Shown here in pieces: positions 13,195 through 42,044 of a DNA stretch of 64,000 bases. A program made the translations under genes and the position numbers. The notes under the pieces were generated by a model. That model was given only the letters and a program-made list of their open reading frames with translations, had not been told where the DNA came from and did not search any database. The stretch's first letter is position 1. Each line of letters starts with the position of its first letter. The DNA is from Pleurocapsa sp. FMAR1. GTDB lineage: Bacteria > Cyanobacteriota > Cyanobacteriia > Cyanobacteriales > Xenococcaceae. The DNA is taken from assembly GCF_963665995.1 (NCBI RefSeq), contig NZ_OY762512.1:1054001-1118000 (forward strand), read 5' to 3'.

Positions 13195-14790
13195 ATGAAT
13201 AATACAGATCATCATAAATTTGCTTTAACTACTCCCCTTTATTATGTTAACGGCGTACCGCATATTGGTAGTGCCTACACTACTATGGTGGCTGATGCTG
13301 CTGCTAGATTTCAGCGTTTGCAGGGAAAATCTGTTTTATTTATTACTGGAACAGATGAACACGGACAAAAGATTCAGCGCACTGCTGTTGAACAAAACTT
13401 AGAGCCTCAAGTTTTTTGCGATCGCAATGTTGAAAGCTTTAAATCTCTGTGGTCACAATTAAACATCAAATACGATCGCTTTAGTCGTACCACTGCGCCT
13501 AATCATCAAGCAATTGTTAATGAGTTTTTTGAGCGTGTCTGGCAACAGGGTGATATCTACCTTGATCGCCAACAGGGTTGGTATTGCGTCTCTTGTGAAG
13601 AGTTCAAGGAAGAACGAGAATTAATCGATGATCGCCATTGTGCTATCCACACTAGCAAGCAAGCAGAGTGGCGGGATGAAGAAAATTATTTTTTTCGTCT
13701 TTCTAACTATCAGCAATATTTAGAAGAACTATATGAGTCCCAACCAGATTTTATCCAGCCAGCTACGCGACGCAATGAAGTTATCAACTTTGTTAAACAA
13801 GGTTTAAAAGATTTCTCTATTTCCCGCGTTAATTTAGATTGGGGTTTTCCTGTTCCTGTAGATAAAAAGCACACTATCTATGTTTGGTTTGATGCTCTTT
13901 TAGGCTATGTTACCGCTTTGCTTGAACCTAATCAAGAACCAACTTTAGATAATGCCTTGTCTCAATGGTGGCCGATTAATTTACATTTAATTGGTAAAGA
14001 TATATTACGTTTTCATGCAGTTTATTGGCCAGCTATGTTAGCTTCTGCTGGTTTGCCTTCACCAAATAAAGTGTTTGGTCATGGCTTTTTGACCAAAGAT
14101 GGACTCAAAATGGGAAAAACTTTGGGCAATACCGTCGATCCCTTTGAGCTAGTAGATAAGTATGGTGCAGACGCTGTACGCTATTACTTCCTCAAAGAAA
14201 TTGAGTTAGGTAAAGACGGCGATTTTAATGAAACTCGTTTTATTGAAGTGCTTAATAACGATTTAGCTAATGTCTTGGGCAACTCGCTTAACCGAACTCT
14301 GGGGATGTTAACCAAATATTGCCAAAGTAAAGTTCCGCAGTTAAACAGTGATGACTATGATTCAGACCATCCACTTTTTAGTATTGGCATGGATTTAGGC
14401 GATCGCGTGGCTTTAGCTTACGAAAATCTGCAATTTAGTCGAGCTTGCGAAGAAATATTAACTTTGGTGCGCTCTTGCAATAAATATATTGATGACAGTG
14501 CGCCTTGGAGTTTATTTAAGCAGCAAAAACAATCTGAGGTAGAACATATTTTATATGCCGTCTTAGAGTCTGTACGTTTGTCGGCTTACTTGTTGTCTCC
14601 TGTGATCCCCGACATCAGCAGCAAAATTTATCAACAGTTAGGGTTTGACTGGGATTTTAACAGTAGCGATCGAGTACAGACAAAGGAAGATTTTCTGATT
14701 CATTCACAGTGGGGCAAACTATCTATTAATAAAAAACTAGATAAGGCTAGTCCAGTCTTTTCTAAATTAGAATTACCGTCGAAAGATTAA
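13195..14790 (+). CDS. metG: Methionine--tRNA ligase
   Basis: The 531-aa class I synthetase charges tRNA-Met. The HIGH-type motif is 'VPHIGSAYTT' near residue 22. The connective peptide carries a C/H cluster ('YCVSC', 'HCAIH') in the zinc-knuckle region. The KMSKS loop appears as 'LKMGKTLGN' near residue 302; the serine-to-glycine change is common in bacterial MetRS of this subclass. An anticodon-binding helical domain follows. There is no C-terminal EMAP/Trbp111 extension, in line with the short cyanobacterial form. Confidence 0.96.
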   Translation: MNNTDHHKFALTTPLYYVNGVPHIGSAYTTMVADAAARFQRLQGKSVLFITGTDEHGQKIQRTAVEQNLEPQVFCDRNVESFKSLWSQLNIKYDRFSRTTAPNHQAIVNEFFERVWQQGDIYLDRQQGWYCVSCEEFKEERELIDDRHCAIHTSKQAEWRDEENYFFRLSNYQQYLEELYESQPDFIQPATRRNEVINFVKQGLKDFSISRVNLDWGFPVPVDKKHTIYVWFDALLGYVTALLEPNQEPTLDNALSQWWPINLHLIGKDILRFHAVYWPAMLASAGLPSPNKVFGHGFLTKDGLKMGKTLGNTVDPFELVDKYGADAVRYYFLKEIELGKDGDFNETRFIEVLNNDLANVLGNSLNRTLGMLTKYCQSKVPQLNSDDYDSDHPLFSIGMDLGDRVALAYENLQFSRACEEILTLVRSCNKYIDDSAPWSLFKQQKQSEVEHILYAVLESVRLSAYLLSPVIPDISSKIYQQLGFDWDFNSSDRVQTKEDFLIHSQWGKLSINKKLDKASPVFSKLELPSKD

Positions 14791-14948
14791 ATTATGACGA
14801 TTAACTTAACACAGTATATTTTTTTACTGATATAAGATTACTAGCATAAACGACAAGCCACAGTGACATTATCGTTGATATTGAAGCATATCTATACCAA
14901 TTAATTATAGATAGAAAATTGATTATTTACTTTAACAGTCAACTTTAC

Positions 14949-14963
14949 ACCGCCTTACGCGGT
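14949..14963. repeat. Solitary REP-like palindrome ACCGC-CTTAC-GCGGT
   Basis: A five-base-pair GC-rich hairpin sits in an AT-rich spacer between metG and the LabA-like gene. It is nearly the same as the left hairpin (32806-32821) of the RAYT element in the defence island, differing in the loop. It may be a dispersed partner of that transposase, but one copy is weak evidence. Confidence 0.4.
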
Positions 14964-26377: not shown

Positions 26378-28405
26378 TTGGGAAAATTAGATATTAAGAG
26401 TAATTTTTCTATTAAAGGGGTTAATTTGAGCTTAAATGAGCTAACTATTCAAGATGAATATCGTAGCAGTGACTGTTCGATAGTACAGGACTTTTATATT
26501 CCCTGTTTAGAAAAATCGATAGTTTATAAAAGAGCAGTCGGTTTTTTTTCTAGCACTTCAATGGCTATTGCTGCCAAAGGTTTGAAAGCTTTAATTCATG
26601 CAGGTGGAAAAATGCAGTTGATTGCATCACCCAAATTATCTGACGAAGACGTTGAAGCGATTATCAAAGGACTTAAACAAAGAGAAGAAATAATTGCTGA
26701 AGTTACTAAAAAAGAGTTAGAGCAAGAATTTAGTGAAGTAGTTAAAGATCGTTTAGCTTGTCTGGCTTGGTTATTAAGTCAGCAACTACTTGATATCAAA
26801 CTTGCCATTCCTAAAAATATTCGACACAGAGGAATCTATCATGAAAAACTTGGTATTTTTGAAGATACTAGGGGGAACATCATTGCGTTTACAGGTTCAG
26901 CTAATGAAAGTGCAACTGCTCTAATTAACAATTTTGAATGTATTGATGTTTTTTGTTCTTGGCAAACAGCAATTAAAGATAGAACGTTACGCAAAGCAGA
27001 TAACTTTAACAAGTTATGGGATAATCAAACGAATAATTTGGATGTAATTGAATTACCTGAAGCAGCTAAAAAATCTTTGCTTCAATTATGTCCAAATGAA
27101 AAACCAGAATTAGAACTAAATTTTGTCTCTCAATCTAATTTTAAATCTAAATCGGTATCAGAAAATAGAGATCGAGGATATCAAATTGAAACTCAAGCAA
27201 AAAATCGTTGGCAACATCAAATAGAAGCAAAAAATGCTTTTCTCAAATATCGTTGCGGAATTTTGGAAATGGCGACAGGCACGGGTAAAACTCATACCGC
27301 AATTTCTATTTTGCAGCATTTGGTGAATGTCAGAGAGATTAATACTATTATTATCACTACCACTGGCACGGATTTATTAAATCAGTGGGTAGAGCAGTTA
27401 TACACAGTTGCTAGTAATCTAAATCCTCAGTTTAGAGTTTTAAGACATTATGACAAATTTTATGAAAAGGATGAATACGAGCTAGAGTCAGAGAATAGCA
27501 TTTTGGTTATATCTTCTAAGTCTTTACGTAATGTTTTAAGAACGCTCACTTATTCTACTAGAAAGAACTTATTAGTTATTTATGATGAAGTTCATGGATT
27601 TGGCAGTCCACAAATGATTGAAGATTTAACAGGACTTTCAGATGGAATTGGTTATCGATTGGGATTGAGTGCTACACCAGAACGTGAATACGATTCGGAA
27701 GGGACAGAATTTATCGAGGAGCATATTGGCTCTGTAATCTATCAATTTGGTATTGAAGAAGCTATTCGTCGCGGTATTCTTTGTGAGCTTGATTATTATC
27801 CAATAGAGTACGAACCTTCTGATGAAGACAAAGGTAAAATACAGTCTCTTTACAGAAGTCAGTCAGCCAAGAAAAGAGCGGGTAATCCCATGTCTAAAAA
27901 AGATTTTTGGACTGCTTTAGCCAGAGTTCATAAAGTCTCGATTGCTAAATTGCCATATTTTGAACAATTTATTGTCAATAATTTAGAGATACTAAAGCAA
28001 TGTATTATATTCGTTGAAGAACGTCAGTACGGAGACCAAGTTATTGATATTATTCATAAGCATATTCACAATTTTCATACTTATTATGCTGAAGATAATC
28101 AACAAAACCTAATAGATTTTGCCGATGGCAAAATTTCTTGCTTAGTTACCTGTCATAAAATTTCTCAAGGTATTGATATTCAATCTTTACGCTCAGTAAT
28201 TTTATTTTCATCATCTAAAGCTAAATTGGAAACAATACAAAGAATAGGGCGTTGCTTACGTAAAGATCGTAAAAATCCTAATAAGAAAGCTATTATTGTC
28301 GATTTAGTTAGAAATCAAGATGAAAACAAGACAGAATTGAATAGCGACCAGCTTCGCAAAGAATGGCTAACTGACTTATTGAAAATTCGTTGTGAAATTA
28401 TTTAA
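26378..28405 (+). CDS. PLD-nuclease/DEAH helicase restriction protein of a phosphorothioation system
   Basis: The 675-aa protein joins an N-terminal phospholipase-D-type nuclease to a superfamily 2 helicase. The nuclease motif is H155-x-K157 in 'YHEKLGIFED', followed by 'FTGSANES'. The helicase has Walker A 'MATGTGKTHT' (K304), DEVH (403-406), 'LGLSATPERE' and 'QRIGRCLRKDRKNPNK'. Proteins of this build cluster with dnd genes and are described as restriction enzymes that act on DNA lacking phosphorothioate marks. The longest frame starts at TTG 26378. TTG 26426 (residue 17) has a much better ribosome site (AAAGGGG) and the conserved part begins just after it. It is the first gene of a one-strand run to 35308. 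Confidence 0.85.
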   Translation: MGKLDIKSNFSIKGVNLSLNELTIQDEYRSSDCSIVQDFYIPCLEKSIVYKRAVGFFSSTSMAIAAKGLKALIHAGGKMQLIASPKLSDEDVEAIIKGLKQREEIIAEVTKKELEQEFSEVVKDRLACLAWLLSQQLLDIKLAIPKNIRHRGIYHEKLGIFEDTRGNIIAFTGSANESATALINNFECIDVFCSWQTAIKDRTLRKADNFNKLWDNQTNNLDVIELPEAAKKSLLQLCPNEKPELELNFVSQSNFKSKSVSENRDRGYQIETQAKNRWQHQIEAKNAFLKYRCGILEMATGTGKTHTAISILQHLVNVREINTIIITTTGTDLLNQWVEQLYTVASNLNPQFRVLRHYDKFYEKDEYELESENSILVISSKSLRNVLRTLTYSTRKNLLVIYDEVHGFGSPQMIEDLTGLSDGIGYRLGLSATPEREYDSEGTEFIEEHIGSVIYQFGIEEAIRRGILCELDYYPIEYEPSDEDKGKIQSLYRSQSAKKRAGNPMSKKDFWTALARVHKVSIAKLPYFEQFIVNNLEILKQCIIFVEERQYGDQVIDIIHKHIHNFHTYYAEDNQQNLIDFADGKISCLVTCHKISQGIDIQSLRSVILFSSSKAKLETIQRIGRCLRKDRKNPNKKAIIVDLVRNQDENKTELNSDQLRKEWLTDLLKIRCEII

Positions 28406-28407
28406 TT

Positions 28408-28605
28408 ATGGCTATAGATATAAAAGTTAGAGAATCAGTTCTAGAAGCAGTACACAATAGCAATCAATCAGATAAAGTTGCTCAAAAAATAGTTAATCTA
28501 CTTGAAGAATTATCTAACGGCACTTTCGATTTAAACAATCGAGAAGAAATTCAAATTTATTTGAACACTATCTTAGAAGCGATCAATATTAATATTACTA
28601 AATAG
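28408..28605 (+). CDS. Small protein of the phosphorothioation island, function unknown
   Basis: The 65-aa helical, acidic protein starts two bases after the helicase stop and ends two bases before the next start, so it is cotranscribed and probably translationally coupled. It has no cysteine, signal or membrane segment. The pattern of two amphipathic helices ('VLEAVHNSNQSDKVAQKIV', 'NREEIQIYLNTILEAI') suggests a binding subunit or regulator of the flanking ATPases. I do not recognise a family; short proteins at this place are known in DNA-modification clusters. Confidence 0.7.
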   Translation: MAIDIKVRESVLEAVHNSNQSDKVAQKIVNLLEELSNGTFDLNNREEIQIYLNTILEAININITK

Positions 28606-28607
28606 CA

Positions 28608-30587
28608 ATGAGTTTAAAACTTAGTATACTGGGGTGGTCGGCTTTAAATTTACGCTGTCCAGACCATCAAATATCTTTATGTCCCGAAAATAGTCAAACT
28701 CCTTACAAAGTTACTCTCATCCAAATGCCCAATGGCACTGGGAAAACAACCACTCTCGATCTTTTAAGAGCTACTTTATCAGGTTCGGCAAAGCAATGGA
28801 CACCAGAGCATATAACAGAATTTCGCAATAATAATAATTCTGCTCCATCGGGTTCATTTATTGTCAAATTGTCACTCGACGATAAGCTGCTCACGTTTGA
28901 GCTAAATTTCGATTTTAATCGAGAAAAAGCAAGTTACAGAACTACTTATGGTTCTGCTGGAATTAAAGATGGATTTTTACCACCACCAAGTATTAAAAAA
29001 TTTTTGAATCCAGAATTTGTCAGTCTGTTTGTTTTTAATGGAGAACTAGCTCGTAATTTACTAGATTCCAAACAAACACGCGCCCGTGATGCTATAGATT
29101 CTTTGTTTCAATTGTCTTTACTTGAAGACATTTCTAACGAATTTCAACAAAATTGGGAAAACCATACAAAAAATGCTGGATTTAAAACAGAACAAGCATT
29201 AAAACAGAGGAATAATAAATTAAAAGATTTAAAAGAAAGGAAGAAAGCAATAGAAGCCAAAAAAAAGGAACTGCATTCACAAAAATCGTATCTAAGCACA
29301 GAAATTCAGAGAGCAGAACAAGAATACAATATTGCTTTCAATAAAGATAAAGATTTGGGGGCGCAGTTAAAAAAGCTACAGCATGATTTTACACGCGCAG
29401 AAAAAACTGTAAGCTTAGAGCTTCAGCAAACTATTGAACAGATGCGTAGTCCACAAAAACTATTTGCAGATTTTGGTATATCTCTTCTCAATTTTAAAGA
29501 TAATTTGGATAGTCTGAAATTACCTAGTTCAACATCACAAGAATTTTTTAAAGAATTATCAAGAGCAAACAAATGTGTATGTAATCGCCATATTGATGAA
29601 AAAGCGAGTAAGGCTATTTTAGAGCGTGCCAGTCAATATCTAGGAGAAGATGAAGTTGGGGTTCTAAATAGTATTAAATCAGATATTGCTAATTATTGCG
29701 ATCGCAATACAATAAAATCTTATCAAGAACTCGAAAAAAATTTAGAACAATTAAGAGATTCTATTAGACTAAGAGACAATCTTAATACAGAAATTTATGC
29801 CACAGAAAAGCAGCGTTTCGAGCAAGGCGATTCAGAATTAGAAAGCAAGCAACAGCGTCTTAATAAATTTAAACATCAACTTGAAACTTGCGAGGCAGAA
29901 CTGAAAAAAATAGAGAGATATCCACTAAGCAATCCTAGTGATGACACGAAATGTTTAAAAGAATTAATAAATTTGATTAAAAAAGCTGAATATGATGTTG
30001 CTGAAGCAACAAATACTATCGCATTAAAAAAGAAAACAGAAATTATTCGAGACATACTAACCTTATCTCGTAAACAAGCTAGGGAGAAACTGAGAAAATT
30101 TGTTATTGATGAAACCAATCAGCGCATCTCTCAATTACTAACCCGCAATCCAGTTATTTTGGAAGATATTCAAGATTTTCTTCAGTTAAAAAATCGCAGA
30201 GGAGCTAGCGAAGGTCAAACGCTATCTGTTAGTTACGCTTTCTTAGCAACTCTTTTTAACCAAAGCACCTATCAACTGCCCTTTATTGTTGATAGTCCTG
30301 CTATTTCCCTTGACCTTAATGTTAGAACAGAAGTAGCAGGTCTTGTTCCTTCTCTTTCAGAACAATTTTTGGCTTTTACTATTTCTAGTGAAAGACAAGG
30401 TTTTATAAGTACACTGTATCAAGCAGCAAACCAAGAAGTTAAATATTTGACCTTATTTCGTCAAACATTGGAAATGGAAGATATTTGGCAAGGCCTAGAT
30501 ACCAGAATTGTTACAGAAACAACTGATGGAGTATTAGTAGAAGGGAAAGAATTTTTTGAGCAATTCGATTTAGATGATGAGGTTTAA
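28608..30587 (+). CDS. SMC/DndD-like ATPase with a CxC element in its coiled coil
   Basis: The 659-aa protein has the head-coil-head build of Rad50/SMC ATPases. Walker A is 'MPNGTGKTTT' (K46). Coiled coil runs over about 200-260 and 380-470. The sequence 'NKCVCNRHID' (C323, C325) lies between the coils, where Rad50 has its zinc hook. The C-terminal half-site has 'GASEGQTLSVSYAF' in place of the LSGGE signature and 'LPFIVDSPAISLDL' as Walker B/D-loop. It is clearly distinct from the true DndD at 33314, so the island codes for two SMC-type ATPases. It probably couples ATP use to DNA loading of the upstream nuclease-helicase or of the sulfur-modification proteins; this is inference. Confidence 0.82.
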   Translation: MSLKLSILGWSALNLRCPDHQISLCPENSQTPYKVTLIQMPNGTGKTTTLDLLRATLSGSAKQWTPEHITEFRNNNNSAPSGSFIVKLSLDDKLLTFELNFDFNREKASYRTTYGSAGIKDGFLPPPSIKKFLNPEFVSLFVFNGELARNLLDSKQTRARDAIDSLFQLSLLEDISNEFQQNWENHTKNAGFKTEQALKQRNNKLKDLKERKKAIEAKKKELHSQKSYLSTEIQRAEQEYNIAFNKDKDLGAQLKKLQHDFTRAEKTVSLELQQTIEQMRSPQKLFADFGISLLNFKDNLDSLKLPSSTSQEFFKELSRANKCVCNRHIDEKASKAILERASQYLGEDEVGVLNSIKSDIANYCDRNTIKSYQELEKNLEQLRDSIRLRDNLNTEIYATEKQRFEQGDSELESKQQRLNKFKHQLETCEAELKKIERYPLSNPSDDTKCLKELINLIKKAEYDVAEATNTIALKKKTEIIRDILTLSRKQAREKLRKFVIDETNQRISQLLTRNPVILEDIQDFLQLKNRRGASEGQTLSVSYAFLATLFNQSTYQLPFIVDSPAISLDLNVRTEVAGLVPSLSEQFLAFTISSERQGFISTLYQAANQEVKYLTLFRQTLEMEDIWQGLDTRIVTETTDGVLVEGKEFFEQFDLDDEV

Positions 30588-30592
30588 AAAAA

Positions 30593-31060
30593 TTGGGCTT
30601 TGAATTACGTCAAGATGCTAGGAAGTGGTTCAGAGATATAGAGAACAATTATCCTGATTTATTCGATCTTTATTATCTGTGTGTAATACCTGGTTTTATT
30701 ACAAGACGCAGAAACACAGAAGTGAATTTAGATAATGTCAAGGAAATAACTAGATATTTTCCTGGTGCTTTTCGTTCTCGTGGAAAATTGTTAGTAGGTC
30801 TTTTAATTGAAACAGAGCTTTCTCGCTTAGGTATAGATTTGCAAGAGCGTACATCTGTCTATAGTAGAATCTCAGAATTAGTTGTAACGACTCCACCATA
30901 TCTATCTGATACAGGTATCAAGCTAATGAATCAATATGCTCATGGAGGTTTTGATATCTTGTGTGAGAACATTGATGAGCGACCTAGATCAATCGAAACT
31001 TTTGTTAGAAAGTATTATTCTTTGATTCAAAACTTAAAACAAGATTCGTACAATAATTAA
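30593..31060 (+). CDS. 155-aa protein of the phosphorothioation island, function unknown
   Basis: The only reasonable start is TTG at 30593, five bases after the stop of the SMC-like gene. The sequence is compact and mixed alpha/beta without membrane segments, rich in aromatic residues ('YPDLFDLYYLCVIPGF') and with a basic cluster 'FITRRRNTE'. Small accessory proteins of this size are listed as dnd-associated in cyanobacteria, and the position between the SMC-like gene and dndC supports that, but I cannot name the family from the sequence alone. The short gap suggests translation depends on the upstream gene. Confidence 0.7.
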   Translation: MGFELRQDARKWFRDIENNYPDLFDLYYLCVIPGFITRRRNTEVNLDNVKEITRYFPGAFRSRGKLLVGLLIETELSRLGIDLQERTSVYSRISELVVTTPPYLSDTGIKLMNQYAHGGFDILCENIDERPRSIETFVRKYYSLIQNLKQDSYNN

Positions 31061-31150
31061 TTTTGCACAATTTATTAAAAAAACTAAGCATTTTCCTGTT
31101 ATCGTCAAATTGAGTTGTTTAATAGTTTTGATAAATACTGGTTAGATAAC

Positions 31151-32767
31151 ATGGCACAGAAACAAACCTCATTGCCAGCTTCACGTAATGTACCTGAATT
31201 GTTTACTCACATTGACAAATTAATTCAGGAAATACAAGCATTATATTGTCTTGATGCTGTGCCTTGGGTCATTGGTTATTCAGGTGGTAAAGATTCTACA
31301 GTTACCTTGCAGCTTATTTGGAATGCTTTATTCGCTTTACCCAAAGAAAAAAGAACTAAAAAAGTTTATGTCATAACTACAGATACTCTTGTAGAAAACC
31401 CCATTGTGTCCCATTGGGTGAGTAAATCTTTAGAACAGATGAAGACTGCTGCCCAAGAGCAAAACTTACCCATAGAACCTCATTTGCTTGCCCCTGATGT
31501 TAAAGATACGTTCTGGGTAAATTTAATGGGAAAAGGTTATCCTGCGCCTCGTCATGGATTTCGTTGGTGTACTGAGAGATTAAAAATTCATCCCACAAAT
31601 CACTTTATTCGTAATGTAATTAGGATTAGTGGCGAAGCTGTTTTGGTTTTGGGAACTCGTAAAGCTGAGAGTACAAATCGGGCAGCAACAATGGCTAAAT
31701 ATGAAATAGGCGAGGTCAGCGAGTTACTACAGTCTGATTCTAATTTATCTAATTCATTGCGCTACAGTGATACGTTACCTAATGCCGTGATTTACAGTCC
31801 GATTCAAGAATGGCGAGATGATGAGGTTTGGATGTACCTTATGCAGTGCCAGAATCCTTGGGGAAAAAGTAACCAAGATTTATTTAGTATGTATCGTGGT
31901 GCGACTGAAGATAATGAGTGTCCTCTGGTCGTTGATACTTCGACACCCAGTTGCGGAGATTCAAGATTTGGCTGTTGGGTCTGTACTCTAGTAAATAAAG
32001 ACAGGTCAATGGAAGCTATGATTCAAAACGATGAAGAGAAAGAGTGGCTGCAACCTTTATTAGATATACGTAATGAACTGGATATTCATCAAGACCGCCA
32101 TCGGCGAGATTTTCGTCGTCTTCGTGGTAAGGTACAACTTTTTGAACGTGAACAAAGAGGAAAAACAACTATTAAAAATATTCCTGGTCCATATGTTAGA
32201 AAGTGGCGAGAGATTTGGCTGAAAAAAGTATTAGAAGCACAAGTAGAAGTTAGACAAAATGCGCCAGAAGAATTTAAAGATATTAGTTTAATTACTGATG
32301 AAGAATTAAGCGAGATCAGAAGGATTTGGCTGGAAGAAAAACATGAATTTGATGATAGTCTGCCTCGCATATATAAAGAAGTAACAGGAGAAGAGTTCAA
32401 AGATATTAGAATTGGTGCGGATGAGAAGCTATTGGGTAATGATGAGTGGGAAACTTTAGAGGAAATATGTGATGATGAGATGCAGTTGGAATTGATGTCA
32501 AAGCTGTTAGATACAGAAAGGCAATTTCATACTAAGAATCGTCGTCTGGGTATCTATGAAAGCTTAGAAAAGTGCTTTGATACTAGTTCTAGAAGTCAAG
32601 AAGATGCGATCGCAAATGCTCATCAAAAATATAACTTAAAAACTGCTGCTGAACAAGGTGATATTCAAGCGGTAAGAGAAAAAGTAGAACAGTTAAATAA
32701 ACCAAGCAATGATTTAGAAGAAGATAAAATTGGTTGGGGAAGTATCAAATTTGCTCCCAAATCTTAA
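31151..32767 (+). CDS. dndC: DNA phosphorothioation sulfurtransferase DndC
   Basis: DndC is a PAPS-reductase-like ATP pyrophosphatase that activates DNA with ATP and passes sulfur to the backbone. The PP-loop is 'GYSGGKDSTVTLQ' (S44 counted from ATG 31151). Iron-sulfur cysteines are visible in 'RWCTERLKIHP', 'CPLVVD', 'PSCGDSRFGCWVC'. The frame is open to TTG 31115, but ATG 31151 gives the usual N-terminus. The product is about 538 aa; the last 130 residues are acidic and poorly conserved. No cysteine desulfurase gene (dndA) lies in the window, so sulfur would come from a housekeeping IscS/SufS. Confidence 0.93.
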   Translation: MAQKQTSLPASRNVPELFTHIDKLIQEIQALYCLDAVPWVIGYSGGKDSTVTLQLIWNALFALPKEKRTKKVYVITTDTLVENPIVSHWVSKSLEQMKTAAQEQNLPIEPHLLAPDVKDTFWVNLMGKGYPAPRHGFRWCTERLKIHPTNHFIRNVIRISGEAVLVLGTRKAESTNRAATMAKYEIGEVSELLQSDSNLSNSLRYSDTLPNAVIYSPIQEWRDDEVWMYLMQCQNPWGKSNQDLFSMYRGATEDNECPLVVDTSTPSCGDSRFGCWVCTLVNKDRSMEAMIQNDEEKEWLQPLLDIRNELDIHQDRHRRDFRRLRGKVQLFEREQRGKTTIKNIPGPYVRKWREIWLKKVLEAQVEVRQNAPEEFKDISLITDEELSEIRRIWLEEKHEFDDSLPRIYKEVTGEEFKDIRIGADEKLLGNDEWETLEEICDDEMQLELMSKLLDTERQFHTKNRRLGIYESLEKCFDTSSRSQEDAIANAHQKYNLKTAAEQGDIQAVREKVEQLNKPSNDLEEDKIGWGSIKFAPKS

Positions 32768-32805
32768 TAGTTATGGCGATTGTAAATCACTCTTACACGG
32801 ACAAT

Positions 32806-33254
32806 AACCGCCTGCGCGGTTTTAAATTTAGTAAATGAGAAATAACTATACGCAAATGTATATCCACTGCGTTTGGGCAACTTGGGACAGATTACCTTTA
32901 GTTACTGCTGATATTAAGCAGCAGATTTATGCTGTAATCATCAATGAATGTAAAAAAATGAAATGTACCGCAATTGCTATAGGTGGAATTGAAGATCATG
33001 TTCATCTATTAGCGGGATTTCCCACAACAATTACTATTGCCAGTTTGGCCAAGCAAGTTAAGGGTAGTTCATCTCATTGTGTCAACCATGTTATTAGACC
33101 AAATCAATTCTTTAAATGGCAAGGAAGTTATGGTGCATTTACCGTGAGTCATAGCGGAATCAATCGCGTTGCTAACTATATCCGAAATCAAGAAGATCAT
33201 CACAAGCAAAAGTCTTTTATTAGTCATTGGGAAATATAGTCCGCGCAGGCGGAC
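32806..33254 (+). mobile_element. IS200-type/RAYT element with REP-like hairpins at both ends
   Basis: The tnpA gene (32835-33239) is bracketed by AACCGC-CTGC-GCGGTT (32806-32821) and GTCCGC-GCAG-GCGGAC (33239-33254). The two hairpins share a CCGC/GCGG stem core, and their loops are reverse complements. Such flanking foldbacks are the single-strand recognition sites of Y1 HUH transposases. No accessory tnpB is present. The element splits the dnd operon between dndC and dndD. Confidence 0.8.
32835..33239 (+). CDS. tnpA: IS200/IS605-like transposase TnpA (Y1 HUH, RAYT type)
   Basis: The 134-aa Y1 transposase has the HUH metal motif 'DHVHLL' (H55, H57) and the catalytic tyrosine Y115 in 'VANYIRNQEDHHK'. 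It cuts and rejoins single-stranded DNA at hairpins, often at replication forks. The frame is complete and carries no stop or shift, so the enzyme is probably active. It may have placed a REP-like copy at 14949-14963. Insertion between dndC and dndD on the same strand may allow readthrough into dndD. Confidence 0.9.
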   Translation: MRNNYTQMYIHCVWATWDRLPLVTADIKQQIYAVIINECKKMKCTAIAIGGIEDHVHLLAGFPTTITIASLAKQVKGSSSHCVNHVIRPNQFFKWQGSYGAFTVSHSGINRVANYIRNQEDHHKQKSFISHWEI

Positions 33255-33313
33255 ATTGTATGTATAGCTGCAAATTCTATTTGCCTATTTACGGAAATAT
33301 ATTTTAATTAAAT

Positions 33314-35308
33314 ATGATTTTTACCGAATTAGTTATTGAGAATTTTGGTGCCTATGTAGGAAAGCAGACGATCAATTTGCGTCCAGAAAACGATGGCAGT
33401 ATTCGTCCTATTGTTCTAATAGGAGGGATGAATGGTGGCGGTAAGACTACCTTGATGGATGCAATTCGTTTAGCTTTATACGGACAAAGGGCTAAATGTT
33501 CTACTAGGGGTAATTTAGGCTATAGTGAGTTTTTATTTCAGTCGGTAAATAGTCAGGCTACTTTAGCAGATATAACTAAAATTGAGTTATCTTTTGAAGA
33601 TATTTTTGAAGGACATTGGCAACAGTTTAAAATTATTCGTGCTTGGAATAAAGAGCTTAAAGACGGCAAGGATAGTCTTAGTATTGAGAGAGAAGATAGG
33701 TTTGATAGCAACCTAGAAGATAACTGGGATGAATATATCGAAAATATTCTACCTTTAGGTATTTCTAATTTGTTTTTGTTTGATGGAGAACAAGTTAAAG
33801 AGTTAGCTGAATTAGATACTCCTCCTCCTGCCGTAGTTGAAGCAATTAATAATTTATTAGGCTTAGAATTGGCAGAGAGGCTATCTGTCGATCTGTCAGT
33901 TTTGGTTAATCGAAAACGCAAAGCAGTAGCTAATAAAGCACAGTTGTTAACTATAGAAGAAATTGAGCAGAAGCTAGTAGTTAAAAAGGAGAATAGGCAG
34001 CAGTTACAAAAAGATTTTGCTGAGATCGAAAAAAAATTAAAGCAGGCACATAAACAACGCGATCGCGCTCAAAGCAAATTTAATCAGCAAGGTGGTAAAA
34101 TTGCAGCGACTAGAGAAGTAATTGAAGCTAAAATTCAAGATTTCAATAGTCAATTGGAACAGAAAAGACTGGAATTGATTAAAGTAGCTGAAAGTAGTCT
34201 ACCTTTGGGGTTAATTACACCTTTATTAGCTGATGCAAGGAAGCAGGGAGAACAAGAAGTTAAATCGCAGCAGTTTAAGCAAGCACAAGTTGTTTTAGAG
34301 GCTAGAGATCAAAGGTTATTGAATTATTTAAGTGATATTTCTTTATCGTCAGAATCAATTAATAAAATAGAATTTTTTATCGAAACGGAAAATAAAACTA
34401 TTGCAGATTCTATTAAAGCTACAGCAGATAATTATCTGGATTTAACGGAAAAACAATTACAGCAGTTAATTAGTATTCCTCAAGATCGTTTGGCAATAGA
34501 AACTAAGCTATCTCAGAATATTATCAAGGAAATTGAACAGCTAAAAACTAAGATAAATATTACTGAAACTCAATTAGCAAGTGCTGCATCCCCAGAAGAT
34601 TATCAAAAATTGGTTGATGCAGTAGAAGATGGAAAAGCAGCAGTGAGTAGGTATAAAATCTTATACGATTTAGCTCAAGAGAAACTACAAAACATAGATA
34701 AAGAAATCGATCGCATTCAACAAGAATTAAACCGCAAGCTCAAAAACTATAGTGAAGAAGCTATTGATAAAATTGGCGATGAACATATTATAAAGTCGGC
34801 AACTAAGGTACAAGAAACCCTCAAGCTGTTCAAAGAAAAACTTACCCTCAAAAAACTTAATAAGCTTGAAACTGAAGTCAAGGACTGTTTTCTATATCTG
34901 CTGCATAAATCTAATTTAATTAACCGCGTGACAATTGATAGCGATCGCTTTAAACTAGAGCTATACGATCACAATGGTCAACTGTTTCCTAAGCAACGAT
35001 TATCGGCAGGGGAAAAACAACTACTGGCAATAGCCTTTTTATGGGGTTTGGCTAGAGTCTCAGGACGTAATTTACCGATTGCGATCGATACTCCTTTAGG
35101 CAGATTAGACTCCTCTCACCGTCATAACTTAGTCGAGCGATATTTTCCTACCGCATCACATCAGGTAATTCTGCTGTCCACCGATACAGAAATAAGCGAA
35201 AAGGAAGTAACCATGTTACGTGAACAAGAAGCTATTTCCCAAGAATATTTACTTAAATATAATCCTGATAGCCGTCAAACCATTGCAGAGAAAGGATACT
35301 TTTGGTAA
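33314..35308 (+). CDS. dndD: DNA sulfur modification protein DndD
   Basis: The 664-aa SMC-like ATPase has N-terminal 'IENFGAYVGKQTI', Walker A 'GGMNGGGKTTLMDA' (K44), two coiled-coil arms (about 205-280 and 390-480), the ABC signature 'LSAGEKQLLAIAF' and Walker B 'LPIAIDTPLGRLD'. DndD hydrolyses ATP and is thought to open or shape DNA for the DndC/DndE modification step. In canonical operons dndE follows at once; here the strand is followed by a convergent DUF2294 gene and nothing DndE-like. The start ATG 33314 lies 60 bases after the RAYT hairpin, so expression may depend on readthrough or on a promoter inside the element. Confidence 0.92.
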   Translation: MIFTELVIENFGAYVGKQTINLRPENDGSIRPIVLIGGMNGGGKTTLMDAIRLALYGQRAKCSTRGNLGYSEFLFQSVNSQATLADITKIELSFEDIFEGHWQQFKIIRAWNKELKDGKDSLSIEREDRFDSNLEDNWDEYIENILPLGISNLFLFDGEQVKELAELDTPPPAVVEAINNLLGLELAERLSVDLSVLVNRKRKAVANKAQLLTIEEIEQKLVVKKENRQQLQKDFAEIEKKLKQAHKQRDRAQSKFNQQGGKIAATREVIEAKIQDFNSQLEQKRLELIKVAESSLPLGLITPLLADARKQGEQEVKSQQFKQAQVVLEARDQRLLNYLSDISLSSESINKIEFFIETENKTIADSIKATADNYLDLTEKQLQQLISIPQDRLAIETKLSQNIIKEIEQLKTKINITETQLASAASPEDYQKLVDAVEDGKAAVSRYKILYDLAQEKLQNIDKEIDRIQQELNRKLKNYSEEAIDKIGDEHIIKSATKVQETLKLFKEKLTLKKLNKLETEVKDCFLYLLHKSNLINRVTIDSDRFKLELYDHNGQLFPKQRLSAGEKQLLAIAFLWGLARVSGRNLPIAIDTPLGRLDSSHRHNLVERYFPTASHQVILLSTDTEISEKEVTMLREQEAISQEYLLKYNPDSRQTIAEKGYFW

Positions 35309-36738: not shown

Positions 36739-38088
36739 ATGTCATATTCATTTTCTATTTTTAAAGGATTAAATATTCGTGCCAAGCGATCGCATTTTGC
36801 TCTAATAGCAATGGCGATCGCTTTTTCAGTTTTTTTTGCACCTATCGCTCTAACTCAAGAAGAAGAAAGCATTCCTACGCCAACTGAGCCTGCCCCAATA
36901 GCTATCCCTAGCGACGGGCTTTATTTTGCCGATATTTTAGTCAGAAACCGCCCTGTGTTTCAAATTGGTAGCTTACCTCAAATTGATGCTAGTGCTAGAG
37001 CAGAAATTATTAATCGCCGTATAGCCAGTCTTTTAGCACAAAACGAAACCCCAGACAAAATAGAAATTACCCCTGACAATCCTCGTAAAATTGCCACCCT
37101 GAGAATTAAAAACCGCATTTTGATGACCGTTACCCAGCAAGATGCGGAGGATTTCGGCTTAAGCACTGAAGCCTTGGCTAAAAGATGGTCGCAGCAGCTA
37201 GATACGGCTTTTGATAAACCACCCCTGGCGATCGACGTTACTCAGCGTTTATATACAACTACCAGGGAATTGCTGCGAAATATCGTCAGCAATTTACCTT
37301 CATTGGTAGGTGCAATTATTGTAATTGGCATCACCTGGGTTGCTGCCAAAATATTACGCTATCTTGCTTATACCTGGGCAAAGCAAACCGAGGGAGATTC
37401 AAATACTGAACTTTTGATCGGCAAACTTAGTTATGGTGCAGTCTGGGCAATTGGTTTTATAGTTGCTCTAGGTGTTATGGGACTAGACTTTGGGGCGTTG
37501 TTGGGTGCCTTAGGACTTACAAGTGTGGCAATTGGTTTTAGCCTCAAGGATGTATTAAGTAACTATATTTCTGGAGTTATTTTGCTAGCTGCTCGTCCGT
37601 TTCGGATTAACGATCAGGTTGTTATCGGCGAGTACGAAGGCACAATCACTCAGGTTCAACTAAGAGCAACAACTATGAAGACTTATGATGGTCGGCTAGT
37701 TTATATTCCTAATCAAGAAGTGTTTCAGGCAAGCATTATTAATAATACTGCTTCTCCTCGCCGTCGTAGTTCGGTAATGGTAGGAATTGACTATGGAGAA
37801 GATCTTAGTGACGCGATCGCGGTAATTAGCCAGGTATTAGAAAACTTTCAAGAAGTAGAAACAAATCCTGCACCAGATGTATTAGTTAGTGAACTTGCTG
37901 CTAGTACGGTTAATTTAGAAATCCGCTTTTGGGTAGACTCCCGCAGATCTGGTTTTTTGGCAACCACTTCTAAAGTTGCTCAGAGGGTTAAAGAAGCTTT
38001 AGAAGCAGCAGATATTGATATGCCTACAGATATTTACACTTTAATTTTGCGTGAGCTACCTGGGCAAATTCAGTTGAAAGAGAAATAG
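36739..38088 (+). CDS. MscS-family mechanosensitive channel, long form with signal/leader helix
   Basis: The 449-aa channel has a cleavable-looking N-terminal segment (residues 18-40), about 140 periplasmic residues, and then membrane helices from about 188. The pore helix is 'LGALLGALGLTSVAIGFSL', followed by the MscS beta domain ('FRINDQVVIGEYEGTITQVQLRATTMKTYDGR', 'IPNQEV') and an alpha/beta vestibule. The channel opens on membrane tension to release ions in hypo-osmotic shock. The extra N-terminal region is typical of plant/cyanobacterial-type MscS homologues. It is one of three MscS genes within 5.3 kb. Confidence 0.92.
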   Translation: MSYSFSIFKGLNIRAKRSHFALIAMAIAFSVFFAPIALTQEEESIPTPTEPAPIAIPSDGLYFADILVRNRPVFQIGSLPQIDASARAEIINRRIASLLAQNETPDKIEITPDNPRKIATLRIKNRILMTVTQQDAEDFGLSTEALAKRWSQQLDTAFDKPPLAIDVTQRLYTTTRELLRNIVSNLPSLVGAIIVIGITWVAAKILRYLAYTWAKQTEGDSNTELLIGKLSYGAVWAIGFIVALGVMGLDFGALLGALGLTSVAIGFSLKDVLSNYISGVILLAARPFRINDQVVIGEYEGTITQVQLRATTMKTYDGRLVYIPNQEVFQASIINNTASPRRRSSVMVGIDYGEDLSDAIAVISQVLENFQEVETNPAPDVLVSELAASTVNLEIRFWVDSRRSGFLATTSKVAQRVKEALEAADIDMPTDIYTLILRELPGQIQLKEK

Positions 38089-38118
38089 ATTAGTTAGTAG
38101 TTAGTAGTTAGTAGTTAG

Positions 38119-38138
38119 GGGCGAACGGCCGTTCGCCC
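38119..38138. repeat. Perfect 20-base palindrome GGGCGAACGGCCGTTCGCCC
   Basis: The palindrome lies just after a TAGT/TAGTTAG tandem run (about 38091-38117). Its two arms are the same sequence that forms the inverted ends of the element at 21199-21349. It therefore looks like the collapsed or founder form of that repeat. It could also act as a terminator hairpin for the channel gene ending at 38088, although no U-run follows. Confidence 0.8.
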
Positions 38139-38411
38139 GTACAGTAGTTATACCATTTCTCAAAAGTAGTAAGAGAGATGCAATAGTTTTGAATCACTAA
38201 TAAAAAAAACGAAAAGCTACAGGGAATCGCTTTCCCCAATCCCCAGTCCCCAATCACAGTAATCATCGAAGTCTTTCGTTACTAAAGATAAATGGTATTA
38301 GTAGTTACTGCCAAGAGTATCAGGACTTAGCTGTATCTCGAAAGATATATATCGCGATCGAGATGTTCATGAGCTGATGATAAGCTATCGTTGACTTATT
38401 ATAGTTAATCA

Positions 38412-38807
38412 GTGACAAAGTTTGTGTGTAGATCTATTTTGGTGGTGGAAGATAATGATGATATTTCGTTGTTGTTGATTTTGGTTTTAGAATCAGCAGG
38501 ATATCAGGTAAAAGCCATAAGCAACGGTAAAAATGCCCTGGAAACTGTTGCTCAAATCCAGCCAAACCTAATACTAATGGATATCATGATGCCAGAAGTT
38601 AGTGGCTTAGAGGTTTCTCGTGAAATAAAGACCAAGCCTAACTATCAATCTCTGCCTATTTTGCTTGTCTCTGCTGTTGATCGCCTTCAAGAAAAGCAGT
38701 TTGATGATAGCAAAGCAGACGGCATAATTTATAAGCCATTTGATTTAAACTACTTAGTTTCTAGAGTTGATGAATTGACAAACGTTCGTCAAGCAGTAGC
38801 TAGTTAA
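38412..38807 (+). CDS. Single-domain response regulator (receiver only)
   Basis: The 131-aa CheY-like protein starts at GTG 38412. It has the acidic pair in 'LVVEDNDD', phospho-acceptor Asp in 'LILMDIMMP', the conserved Ser in 'ILLVSAVD' and Lys in 'YKPFD', so all phosphorylation residues are present and there is no output domain. The partner kinase is not adjacent. It sits between two MscS genes, converging with the second (16 bp between stops). Confidence 0.9.
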   Translation: MTKFVCRSILVVEDNDDISLLLILVLESAGYQVKAISNGKNALETVAQIQPNLILMDIMMPEVSGLEVSREIKTKPNYQSLPILLVSAVDRLQEKQFDDSKADGIIYKPFDLNYLVSRVDELTNVRQAVAS

Positions 38808-38823
38808 AGCAAATATCCACGAT

Positions 38824-39699
38824 TTACTTAGCTTTAAGTTCTTCAACGTCTAAAAGATGAGGATAAGCAAGATGATGTTTTGCAAAAGCCTTTTTTGCTC
38901 TGGCGATCAGATCGGTTTTGTAAGTGAACTCATCTCGTGCATCAAGGGGATAAGATTTGAGCTTGAACAAACTCCCCCAAGATTTTTCTTCCATAACCAC
39001 AACAATAGGCAGCTTGAGATGAGTATATTTGCTCGTTTGAGCTACTCGGTATAGAATTTTTTTGACTGTATTAATATCGATTTCGTGGGCAAAGTAAAAC
39101 TTAGTCACTACCTGAGCTTCTAACGCTCCTGCATTAGCGTTGGATATTGATTCTGTCCAAATTTTACTATGGGGAATAGTAACAGTATTATCATCTGGAG
39201 TTTGAATCTTGATGGAGCGTACACCGTAACTTACTACCTCTCCATAGTAGTCTCCAATTTCAATGCGATCGCCTACTCGATAGGGAGATTCAAATAAGCC
39301 GACTATTCCCGCAATAATTGAACTTGCAAAATCCTTAAACGCAAATCCTAACGCTACGGCTACCGTCCCAGTTACTGCTAGGATATTACTCCTAGACAAA
39401 TTAAGAAATAAATTCATCAGAAATACGGTGACAAAGACAAGCAACAGCATTCTTAACAAAGGTAAAAACTGCTTGACTCGGAGTCGCCACTCTTTGGCAA
39501 TTCTTTCTGAAAGCCAATTAACCAGCCAATCTAATAGCTTTAAAATTACGTAAGTGGCTATTAAGACCAAAACTGCTTGGGCTATTTTTCCTGTAGTGAT
39601 TTTGGCAACGAGATCCTTGGTTTGCTCGGCTGTTTCATTGGCAGCATCTCCAGCAGATTGAGCCAACCAATAAAAATTTATTTTAGTAAAATGATTCAT
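38824..39699 (-). CDS. MscS-family mechanosensitive channel, short form
   Basis: The 291-aa channel has an N-terminal helix, two further membrane helices (about 40-62 and 80-103), the pore helix 'ILAVTGTVAVALGFAFKDF', the beta domain ('YRVGDRIEIGDYYGEVVSYGVRSIKIQTPDDN', 'IPHSKIW') and a C-terminal alpha/beta region. It matches the small, E. coli MscS-like form. Its partners may be the two other MscS genes nearby, giving channels with different tension thresholds. Confidence 0.9.
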   Translation of the reverse strand: MNHFTKINFYWLAQSAGDAANETAEQTKDLVAKITTGKIAQAVLVLIATYVILKLLDWLVNWLSERIAKEWRLRVKQFLPLLRMLLLVFVTVFLMNLFLNLSRSNILAVTGTVAVALGFAFKDFASSIIAGIVGLFESPYRVGDRIEIGDYYGEVVSYGVRSIKIQTPDDNTVTIPHSKIWTESISNANAGALEAQVVTKFYFAHEIDINTVKKILYRVAQTSKYTHLKLPIVVVMEEKSWGSLFKLKSYPLDARDEFTYKTDLIARAKKAFAKHHLAYPHLLDVEELKAK

Positions 39700-39828
39700 T
39701 TAGTTGTTGATTATTAGTTATTGCCTGTATCTTTTCTGTACAGGGTATACGTCAGACGATAAGAAGCTTAACTGTGAAACAGCTAGTAAAAGTAAAATAC
39801 TGTTTCACCTATTTAATTAGCAGCATCT

Positions 39829-41031
39829 TTAGTCCCTGTTAATGACAAAGTTATTTTGAGCTAATTCTCGTTTAATCTTGGGATAGTGAATGGGATTTAT
39901 CTTGATAACTTTTTCCTGTTGTTCTACTACACCCTTATTACGCAGCACTTGGACTCGGTTTTGTACTTGGGATTGCTCGTCTCCCAGACTTTCAGCTAAG
40001 GCAGATATGGTTATGTCTCCATGAAGCAAAAGAGAGTACAAAAGATATTGGTCTGCTGACTCTAGATCGGCTAAATCGGGTAGGTGAGGAGTTTGAGCCA
40101 CTACAACTTTTTCAGATAGCTTGTGTTCTACATCTGTTTCAATGTCTTTTAGAAAATCCTCAACTTCATCTATTTCTTTATGGTGAATTGATTTTAAAAA
40201 AGCCTGGACGGCTACAGTGCTAATTCCTTCTGAAATATCGGCTAGGCGATTGAAATAATTGGTTTTATTTGACTTGTCGCCTTCTAAAAGCCGTTTATCA
40301 ATGCCTGGCTTATCAAAAGTAATATCTAAATTCTTAATAATAGGTTCGAGCCAGTCTTGAAATTCTTCAGGCTCAATTTCAGGTAACGTCATCACTTTTC
40401 CGCAATATGCCTCTAAATTGCAGACTGAGTTTAAATATTCCCATCCTACTTCACCCCCGCCAATAATCCAGAAGCGATTTTTAGAGCCATCACACAATAA
40501 TGACTGTAGATATTCAATTCCTTCTAAACCTTCAAGCGATCGCAAAAAACACCAGCTAAGGTTAGGAATTGCTATTACCTCTGACTGTTCTTCTGGTTCA
40601 TCATCTTCAGGCTGTTGTTGCTTGAGATAATGCTCTAATTTAGATTTAATCTTCTCCGCAGCAACTGGTCTGGCTTGCAGGGGCAAAAGCTTCATCGGTA
40701 TTTGCTTCTGTTTTGTCCAGTCTTCTAAAGTCTCTGATAATATACGGGACACCGCAGCCACAGGACTACTAAGAATTACAATTGAATTATTATTATTATT
40801 GGGATTAGCCTGCCAACGTTCAAAAGCTTCATCCAAGGCATCGACAATCGCCTTTTTATCAGCAGGGTTGCTAGATAGATTTTCAGTGTCCTCCACCAGC
40901 TTTTTTCTGACTTCTGGTGACAATTCAATTAGCGATTTTTCAGGCTCTTGGGTTTTTTCCGAGTCTTTAGTGTACCGAGAAAATACAAAATTACGATTAT
41001 CAGCTAGCCAACTTTTAAATCCCTTGAACAT
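39829..41031 (-). CDS. Putative degenerate P-loop ATPase with C-terminal winged helix, paired with MscS
   Basis: The 400-aa soluble protein starts two bases after the MscS stop (41034), so it is translationally coupled to it. The middle resembles an AAA/STAND ATPase fold ('SIVILSSPVAAVSRIL', 'VIAIPNLSWCFLRSLEG', 'RFWIIGGGEVGW'), but the first motif lacks the GxxxxGK(S/T) loop and the second has N/S in place of Walker B acids, so nucleotide hydrolysis is unlikely. A poly-Asn run (NNNNN) precedes it. The last 75 residues form a winged helix ('ISALAESLGDEQSQVQNRVQ' then 'GVVEQQEKVIKIN'). A role as a cytosolic sensor or regulator linked to the channel is inference from the pairing. Confidence 0.7.
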   Translation of the reverse strand: MFKGFKSWLADNRNFVFSRYTKDSEKTQEPEKSLIELSPEVRKKLVEDTENLSSNPADKKAIVDALDEAFERWQANPNNNNNSIVILSSPVAAVSRILSETLEDWTKQKQIPMKLLPLQARPVAAEKIKSKLEHYLKQQQPEDDEPEEQSEVIAIPNLSWCFLRSLEGLEGIEYLQSLLCDGSKNRFWIIGGGEVGWEYLNSVCNLEAYCGKVMTLPEIEPEEFQDWLEPIIKNLDITFDKPGIDKRLLEGDKSNKTNYFNRLADISEGISTVAVQAFLKSIHHKEIDEVEDFLKDIETDVEHKLSEKVVVAQTPHLPDLADLESADQYLLYSLLLHGDITISALAESLGDEQSQVQNRVQVLRNKGVVEQQEKVIKINPIHYPKIKRELAQNNFVINRD

Positions 41032-41033
41032 AA

Positions 41034-42044
41034 TTAGCCGTGTCGCACACTGTCATTATTATTCTTGTCATTTTCTTTATTGTTACGTATCTGAGCTAGT
41101 TGTCGCAGAGAATCGCTAATATCCCTAGCTTTGGGATTGTTACCTTTAACCGAGGGCCAGCCTTCTCTTTGACGAGCGCGATCGCCATCTGTCTCTTCTG
41201 TTTGATCGTGGAACAAGATTTGCTGAGTGGGGAAAGGTAAATCTATACCAGCAGCTACTAGTCTATTACACAACTCGGTTAATACCATATCTTGAGAGTC
41301 TATGGCTTCGGCACGACCAGGAGGACTAATCCACCAGCGAGCGCGAATATTGACGGTGCTATCGGCTAACTCTACTACCAATGCTTCAGGAGGCGGATCT
41401 GATATAGCTTGAGGATCGTCGTGGAGTACATCTAAGATGATTTTCTTGGCTTCGGCAATATTGTCACCATAGCCAATGCCGATATCATACTGTAAACGAC
41501 GTTTTTCAAAGGCTGTATTCACTTTGACTGAGTTGGTAAATAGCTCGGCATTGGGAATTACAATTCTAGTCCCGTCATAAGTTCTAATCATAGTAGCACG
41601 GGTCTGAATGTCTTCTACCGTACCTTCAAAGTCATTAAATACTATCTGATCGCTAATGACAAAAGGTTCAGTAATTAAAATTAAAATACCTGCCAAAAAA
41701 TTTTGCAAAATATCGCGGAAAGCAAAACCGACGGCAACCCCACTAACTCCTAATAGCTGTACTAAATCTCCTGGCTTGAAAGAAGGAATAATAATTGCCA
41801 AGGCAATAAAAGCACCTACTAAGATAATAAATCCCTGGGAAAGCCTAGCTAAAACCAGACCTAGGTTACGGGACTTTTTACGCTTGGTAAAATTTTTAAT
41901 TAACCTGCGGGAAAATCTGGCAATAAACCAAAAAATAATAAAGACAACAACTGCGATTAGTATATTCGGCAACAACTGTATAGTGCTTTTGACCATTGAG
42001 GTCAACTGTTGCGTCGCGGTTTGTATAGGTGTAAAAGAATCCAT
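41034..42044 (-). CDS. MscS-family mechanosensitive channel, third copy
   Basis: The 336-aa channel has helices at about 24-44, 66-90 and the pore helix 'LLGVSGVAVGFAFRDI', then the beta domain ('FVISDQIVFNDFEGTVEDIQTRATMIRTYDGT', 'IPNAEL') and a C-terminal domain. A charged tail of about 60 residues ('RARQREGWPSVKG', poly-Asn near the end) is unusual for MscS and may contact the protein made from the next gene. It heads a two-gene operon with the winged-helix protein at 39829-41031. Confidence 0.92.
   Translation of the reverse strand: MDSFTPIQTATQQLTSMVKSTIQLLPNILIAVVVFIIFWFIARFSRRLIKNFTKRKKSRNLGLVLARLSQGFIILVGAFIALAIIIPSFKPGDLVQLLGVSGVAVGFAFRDILQNFLAGILILITEPFVISDQIVFNDFEGTVEDIQTRATMIRTYDGTRIVIPNAELFTNSVKVNTAFEKRRLQYDIGIGYGDNIAEAKKIILDVLHDDPQAISDPPPEALVVELADSTVNIRARWWISPPGRAEAIDSQDMVLTELCNRLVAAGIDLPFPTQQILFHDQTEETDGDRARQREGWPSVKGNNPKARDISDSLRQLAQIRNNKENDKNNNDSVRHG

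What the first reader, a model, noticed from the sequence alone, without database searches (positions are those of the whole stretch)
26378..35308. Non-canonical phosphorothioation defence island: PLD-helicase, two SMC-type ATPases, DndC and DndD, but no dndB or dndE
Seen: a one-strand run coding for a PLD-type nuclease fused to a DEAH helicase, a 65-aa protein, an SMC-like ATPase with CxC, a 155-aa protein, DndC (PP-loop and Fe-S cysteines intact) and DndD. Known: DndC and DndD belong to DNA sulfur modification, and canonical operons need DndE and often have DndB; restriction partners are usually DndFGH. Inference: the first four genes form the restriction arm, and modification either works without DndE, uses a distant DndE, or has been replaced by another chemistry.
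Basis: partly seen in the sequence, partly recalled or inferred. Interest (0 to 1): 0.8.

Follow-up and report, generated by a model that had tools for sequence, protein, structure and literature searches.

The report
PbeABCD defence cassette on split dnd genes
A cyanobacterium carries a known four-gene antiviral cassette joined to two genes that add sulfur to DNA; the supposedly missing third gene is present, but sits about 200,000 bases away on the same chromosome.

Summary
The genes are real but the reading changes. The first four are the known PbeABCD cassette (PbeA 881 bits; same gene order as Halorubrum trapanicum), joined to DndC and DndD. A clear DndE (143 bits) lies 201 kb from dndD in the same one-contig genome. 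DndB was not found.

Split dnd genes recur. In 69 well-assembled genomes of the order (hand-picked, carriers favoured), DndD and DndE go together: 60 have both, 9 neither intact. Yet in 24 of the 60, across 8 families, they lie over 200 kb apart. One review says the pair is always linked; dispersed dnd genes in Microcoleus were already reported.

The locus is also a mosaic. The first two thirds of dndC group with another genus, whose pbeABCD is also the closest found; the rest of dndC, and dndD, group with the window's own genus. So a restriction cassette was probably recombined onto resident dndCD, with dndE serving from its own site. Two other genomes show similar conflicts within dndC.

New variant of a known kind; function untested.

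The parts
26378..28405 (+). pbeA: single-HKD (PLD-type) nuclease domain fused to an SF2 helicase, 675 aa
   Evidence: PADLOC PbeA 880.9 bits over residues 20-655; 37% identity over 673 aligned columns to Halorubrum trapanicum PbeA; motifs
28408..28605 (+). pbeB: 65-aa CxC-system small protein (Sp-CxC)
   Evidence: PF20304 23.9 bits, E 4e-5, below its cut-off of 27.5; 9 of 10 aligned members match PF20304
28608..30587 (+). pbeC: CxC-type ABC ATPase, 659 aa
   Evidence: PADLOC PbeC only 58.5 bits, DndD 48.9; 28% identity, E 6e-72 to Halorubrum PbeC; CVC hook at 323
30593..31060 (+). pbeD: 155-aa small helical protein
   Evidence: no family hit; 27-35% identity to the fourth pbe gene of Halorubrum, Rhizobium, Priestia and Shinella plasmids
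31115..32767 (+). dndC (likely start ATG 31151); mosaic, breakpoint near codons 350-376 (about 32165-32240)
   Evidence: TIGR03183 694.6 bits; trees and tests
32808..33252 (+). IS200-family Y1 transposase gene (32835-33239) with flanking 12-base inverted repeats; the only copy in the genome
33314..35308 (+). dndD: ABC ATPase without CxC hook, of the window genus's own type
   Evidence: TIGR03185 634 bits over its cut-off of 245.85; best PADLOC model is named PbeC at 888 bits, DndD 758; tree

Best explanation
This is a DndCD(E)-PbeABCD phosphorothioation defence system with its genes split over the chromosome. A pbeABCD cassette, carrying the 5' two thirds of dndC, was recombined onto a resident dndCD pair; the resident dndE stayed at its own site 201 kb away. 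Likely mechanism: DndC, with sulfur from a housekeeping cysteine desulfurase, works with DndD and the distant DndE to put sulfur into the DNA backbone; PbeABCD blocks replication of incoming DNA that lacks the mark. Shown here: gene identities, the distant DndE, joint presence of DndD and DndE, and the tree conflict inside dndC. Inferred: that the DndE works with this DndCD, the direction of the recombination, the sulfur donor, and all activity.
For: PbeA 881 bits. Same A-B-C-D order, next to complete dnd genes, in Halorubrum trapanicum and two Rhizobium plasmids. DndE 143 bits at 1.29 Mb. DndD and DndE present together in 60 and both not intact in 9 of 69 genomes, with 24 of the 60 more than 200 kb apart. 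DndC residues 1-350 group with G244 (100/99) and reject WIN+G120+G162 (p 4e-6); residues 376-550 fall within five same-genus rows (97/95). DndD: same-genus clade 100/100, WIN+G244 rejected (p 4e-12). Same-genus G162 has dndC-dndD 22 bases apart with no pbe gene in the stretch. DndE sits beside the same 373-aa neighbour in same-genus G198.
Against: No expression or chemistry data. The C-part test against WIN+G244 is weak (p 0.027), and breakpoint and clades were chosen after seeing the data. pbeABCD itself has no tree, only best matches. The 69 genomes were picked by hand from visible rows, so non-carriers are under-counted. In the wider set DndC and DndE disagree in 30 of 291 genomes: 19 DndE only, 11 DndC only (rows), some of them nearly complete. 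The transposase could cut transcription between dndC and dndD. DndA was not searched.
Confidence: 0.8

Rival explanations
1. The distant DndE has another job and the local DndCD works without it, with PbeD or another protein as the DNA-binding partner.
For: PMC10853773 (passages) proposes that PbeD is itself a DndE relative; 19 of 291 genomes have DndE without a DndC hit (rows).
Against: DndD and DndE co-occur without exception in 69 genomes. Profile comparison of PbeD with DndE gave probability 0.1 twice. Deletion of dndE abolishes the modification in Salmonella (PMC9239217, passages).
Confidence: 0.1
2. The modification side is decaying: the transposase gene between dndC and dndD breaks the operon, and the cluster is inactive.
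For: Transposase gene with flanking hairpins; the left one scored terminator-like. PbeC is reduced to fragments in same-genus G135 and to a 388-aa frame in G021.
Against: All seven frames are open; the transposase lies between genes and reads the same way; dndC and dndD are split altogether in other genomes (17 of 59 more than 25 kb apart) while both stay intact. Terminator-like sites: 8 found against 4.5 (sd 2.5) in shuffles.
Confidence: 0.15
3. No recombination inside dndC; uneven rates along the gene mimic it.
For: C-part signal is short (180 columns) and the test against WIN+G244 gives p 0.027.
Against: Identity flips along the gene. Two further genomes show conflicting placements in the two parts: G086 (N: G086+G068 rejected p 6e-4; C: G086+G217+G120 rejected p 2e-50) and G120 (N: G120+G162 rejected p 0.02; C: G120+G217 rejected p 0.002).
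Confidence: 0.1

Closest known systems
DndCDEA-PbeABCD of haloarchaea (Halorubrum trapanicum CBA1232 plasmid; Haloterrigena jeotgali A29 studied in PMC6459918)
   Same: The four pbe genes in the same order, sizes alike (PMC6459918: PbeB 66 aa, PbeD 152 aa; here 65 and 155), next to dndC and dndD
   Different: pbe lies upstream of dndCD here and downstream there; dndE and a cysteine desulfurase gene are adjacent there, dndE is 201 kb away here
dndBCDE with convergent pbeABCD on Rhizobium plasmids (NZ_CP007048, NZ_CP021031)
   Same: pbeABCD cassette beside Dnd genes
   Different: Complete linked dndBCDE and cysteine desulfurase there
Cyanobacterial pbeABCD-dndB-dndC-dndD-dndE locus of G021
   Same: pbe genes upstream of dndC and dndD
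   Different: G021 also has linked dndB, an HNH endonuclease, dndE and TIGR04096, but its PbeC frame is short (388 aa)
Dispersed dnd genes in Microcoleus (PMC8546630, passages)
   Same: dnd genes of one genome apart from each other in a cyanobacterium
   Different: Seen there on contigs of drafts (dndBC apart from dndDE by at least 40 kb; dndD and dndE on different contigs in one figure); here on a single complete chromosome with PbeABCD

Membership tests
PbeABCD | four genes in order A-B-C-D on one strand | tested here: met
PbeABCD | PbeA: HKD nuclease fused to SF2 helicase | tested here: met
   880.9 bits; motifs
PbeABCD | PbeC: ABC ATPase with CxC hook | tested here: met
   CVC at 323; 28% to Halorubrum PbeC, E 6e-72; PADLOC score weak, 58.5 bits
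PbeABCD | PbeB: CxC-system small protein | tested here: inconclusive
   PF20304 23.9 bits, cut-off 27.5; 9 of 10 aligned members match
PbeABCD | PbeD homologous to known fourth gene | tested here: met
   27% to Halorubrum, 32-35% to Rhizobium, Priestia, Shinella
PbeABCD | PbeD is a clade-2 DndE (claim of PMC10853773) | tested here: inconclusive
   hhalign probability 0.1; single-sequence model pLDDT 50.6
PbeABCD | phosphorothioation-dependent block of viral replication | not testable with these tools
   needs phage assay
Dnd modification system | DndC | tested here: met
   694.6 bits
Dnd modification system | DndD | tested here: met
   634 bits
Dnd modification system | DndE | tested here: met
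   143.1 bits, at a distant site
Dnd modification system | DndD and DndE linked | tested here: not met
   201 kb apart
Dnd modification system | DndB (optional regulator) | tested here: not met
   TIGR03187 below cut-off; DndB-specific models not run genome-wide
Dnd modification system | DndA or other cysteine desulfurase | not tested
Dnd modification system | d(NpsN) in genomic DNA | not testable with these tools
   needs mass spectrometry
DndFGH | DndF, DndG, DndH | not tested
   no DndFGH model was among the PADLOC hits listed for these eight proteins; rest of genome not searched

The most novel reading that the evidence does not exclude
In this cyanobacterial order, phosphorothioation is a resident machinery whose parts are often scattered over the chromosome and work in trans, with DndD and DndE kept together by function rather than by linkage; restriction cassettes of at least two PbeA types are swapped onto it by recombination inside dndC, so that the 5' part of DndC follows the cassette and the 3' part follows DndD.
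Probability: 0.4. Interest if true: 0.6.

Novelty: new variant of a known kind. Interest (0 to 1): 0.4.

Why it matters
A review treats DndD-DndE as an obligate, always linked pair. If the two genes are retained together although far apart in 24 genomes of 8 families, the partnership can be tested in trans, and surveys that require linked dndCDE under-count the system in cyanobacteria. The breakpoint inside dndC would suggest how restriction cassettes are exchanged without rebuilding the modification enzyme.

Tried and rejected
Rejected: 'no DndE, new chemistry' (DndE found). Rejected: the IS200 element as the mosaic junction; my first idea, but identities put the change inside dndC. Rejected: the 313-326-aa gene between dndC and dndD in G244, G086 and G068 as a hidden dnd part: no family above cut-off; it looks like an exported protein (my reading).

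Led nowhere: structure of PbeD from one sequence (pLDDT 50.6), so no fold search was run; profile comparisons of PbeD with DndE and with solved structures (weak, unrelated hits); search for an empty site (the MscS neighbour of the cluster has different neighbours in G217 and G019, and G103 and G254 showed no match to the left flank); literature searches 'dndE unlinked' and 'elsewhere in the genome' gave no report of a split DndE. Flank genes of the window found no counterpart beside dndC/dndD in the relatives compared. One scan of genome contigs with PbeA returned 10 loci at about 40% identity (one partial at 64%), nine of them Pseudanabaena or Phormidium and one an unnamed cyanobacterium.

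Not done: DndA, DndFGH and DndB-specific models on the whole genome; DndD in the 291-genome set; a tree of pbeABCD; correction of the joint-presence count for relatedness.
Full report
WHERE IT IS. The window is G000:C1:1054001-1118000 of a 5.43 Mb genome held as one contig, 99.88% complete.

THE GENES. On the + strand between 26378 and 35308 lie seven open frames. PbeA: PADLOC 880.9 bits, with HKD at 155, GTGKT at 301, DEVH at 403 and QRIGR at 621. PbeB: 65 aa, Pfam Sp-CxC at 23.9 bits, below the cut-off of 27.5, but 9 of 10 aligned members match that family. PbeC: ABC ATPase with CVC at 323; its PADLOC score is weak (58.5 bits), its identity to Halorubrum PbeC is 28% with E 6e-72. PbeD: 155 aa, no family hit, 27-35% identity to the fourth gene of five pbe loci outside cyanobacteria. 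DndC: 694.6 bits. Transposase: IS200 family, 65.6 bits. DndD: TIGR03185 634 bits; PADLOC's top model for it is named PbeC (888 bits, DndD 758), so I rest the name on NCBIfam and on the missing CxC.

A KNOWN CASSETTE. Halorubrum trapanicum CBA1232 has dndC-dndD-dndE-cysteine desulfurase followed by the same four genes; this strain is named among PbeAC carriers in PMC6459918 (passages). Identities of the window proteins to it are 37% (PbeA), 28% (PbeC), 44% (DndC) and 29% (DndD). Two Rhizobium plasmids carry the four genes converging with dndBCDE and a cysteine desulfurase, and a Priestia plasmid carries dndCDE, an aminotransferase and the four genes. PbeA matches 34 plasmid records in all, 18 over at least 80% of its length. 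PMC10853773 (passages) equates PbeA with the HKD-helicase, PbeB with the small protein, PbeC with the CxC ATPase and PbeD with a DndE. My profile tests do not support that last point, but the alignments are shallow.

DNDE IS PRESENT. PF08870 finds one match in the genome, 143.1 bits, 201 kb from dndD on the other strand. By sequence it also matches the solved archaeal DndE 7x4e (E 1.7e-4). In same-genus G198 the DndE neighbours a 373-aa protein that also neighbours it here.

HOW COMMON IS THE SPLIT. Of 291 genomes of the order, 240 have DndE and 232 DndC, 226 over the cut-off. By the listed rows 221 have both, 19 DndE only, 11 DndC only and 40 neither. Among the disagreeing genomes some are nearly complete (for example G004 with DndC only, G161 with DndE only). 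DndD was not run on this set. I then took 69 genomes with at most 10 contigs, picked by hand from the visible rows; lists of genomes without a match were cut, so non-carriers are under-counted (G142, one contig, was left out). All three families were run on these 69. DndC, DndD and DndE: 59; DndD and DndE without DndC: 1; DndC alone: 2; none intact: 7. DndD and DndE thus agree in 69 of 69, if the two short DndE fragments in G103 and G174 are counted as not intact. DndD and DndE lie within 25 kb in 36 of 60 and more than 200 kb apart in 24 of 60 (8 families, 14 genera). DndC and DndD are within 25 kb in 42 of 59. The Fisher value printed ignores relatedness and should not be used. Co-loss where the genes are unlinked rests on one genome, G103. 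That fragment resembles the second, divergent DndE of G198 rather than the main one.

MOSAIC. On best matches, pbeABCD of the window is closest to G244, another genus of the family (PbeA 1234 bits, next 986), where the order is pbeABCD-dndC-313 aa-dndD. Whole DndC groups with G244 (100/99), while DndD groups with same-genus rows (100/100); each rejects the other's grouping (p 1e-46 and 8e-7). Along DndC, residues up to about 350 favour G244 and those from about 376 favour same-genus rows. Tree of residues 1-350: WIN+G244 100/99, WIN+G120+G162 rejected (p 4e-6). Tree of residues 376-550: WIN within five same-genus rows, 97/95; WIN+G244 rejected only at p 0.027. With more rows, DndD puts WIN beside same-genus G135, 100/99. 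G086 and G120, which carry a different PbeA type upstream of dndC, show similar conflicts. Breakpoint and clades were chosen after looking, so the p values are optimistic. Same-genus G162 has dndC and dndD 22 bases apart and no pbe gene in the 12-kb stretch, a candidate for the resident state. G+C is 28-34% in the pbe genes, 37% in dndC, 35% in dndD, 39% in dndE and 38% in the window.

HOW IT PROBABLY WORKS. From PMC6459918 (passages): the archaeal system marks DNA with phosphorothioate through DndCDEA, and PbeABCD then blocks replication of viral DNA without visible cleavage; the protection needs the mark. PMC10853773 (passages) argues that the HKD domain should cleave DNA. The HKD motif is intact here. 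I infer the same division of labour, with DndE made from its own site.

WHAT IS NEW AND WHAT IS NOT. Not new: PbeABCD with Dnd; varied and disordered dnd operons in cyanobacteria (PMC8569181, section 6 and passages); dnd genes on separate contigs in Microcoleus (PMC8546630, passages). PMC8569181 also says phosphorothioate restriction systems are absent in cyanobacteria; its text does not hold the word pbe, and pbeABCD is present here. [quoted passage not shown] and the breakpoint inside dndC.

VERDICT. A member of a known defence type in an unusual layout.

Noticed in passing
window 32808-33252: IS200-family transposase gene between dndC and dndD, the only copy in the genome, flanked by inverted 12-base repeats that can form hairpins.
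   Followed up: partly
G000:C1:4692578-4693900 (L115): A TIGR04095 'DNA phosphorothioation system restriction enzyme' over its cut-off (634 bits), far from the window; in G168 a weak PbeA match of the same type precedes the dndC-dndD-dndE locus (L102).
   Followed up: partly
G000:C1:1803161-1805110 (L095 7162-9225): A second DndD-like ATPase (140 bits, below cut-off); 55 of the 69 genomes listed have at least one such sub-cut-off DndD-like match; its partner genes have no family name.
   Followed up: partly
G198:C2:50101-50421 (L097): A second, divergent DndE (94 bits) on a 162-kb contig with no DndD match in the 16-kb stretch read.
   Followed up: partly
L079 (G135) 12044-14958: A pbeABCD remnant in a same-genus genome: PbeA frame whole, PbeC reduced to two short fragments.
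   Followed up: partly
L080, L085, L087: A 313-326-aa, probably exported protein without a family above cut-off is encoded between dndC and dndD in three genomes of the family.
   Followed up: partly
window 36739-42044: Three MscS-type mechanosensitive channel genes close together downstream of the cluster; neighbours of the first are rearranged in relatives.
   Followed up: partly
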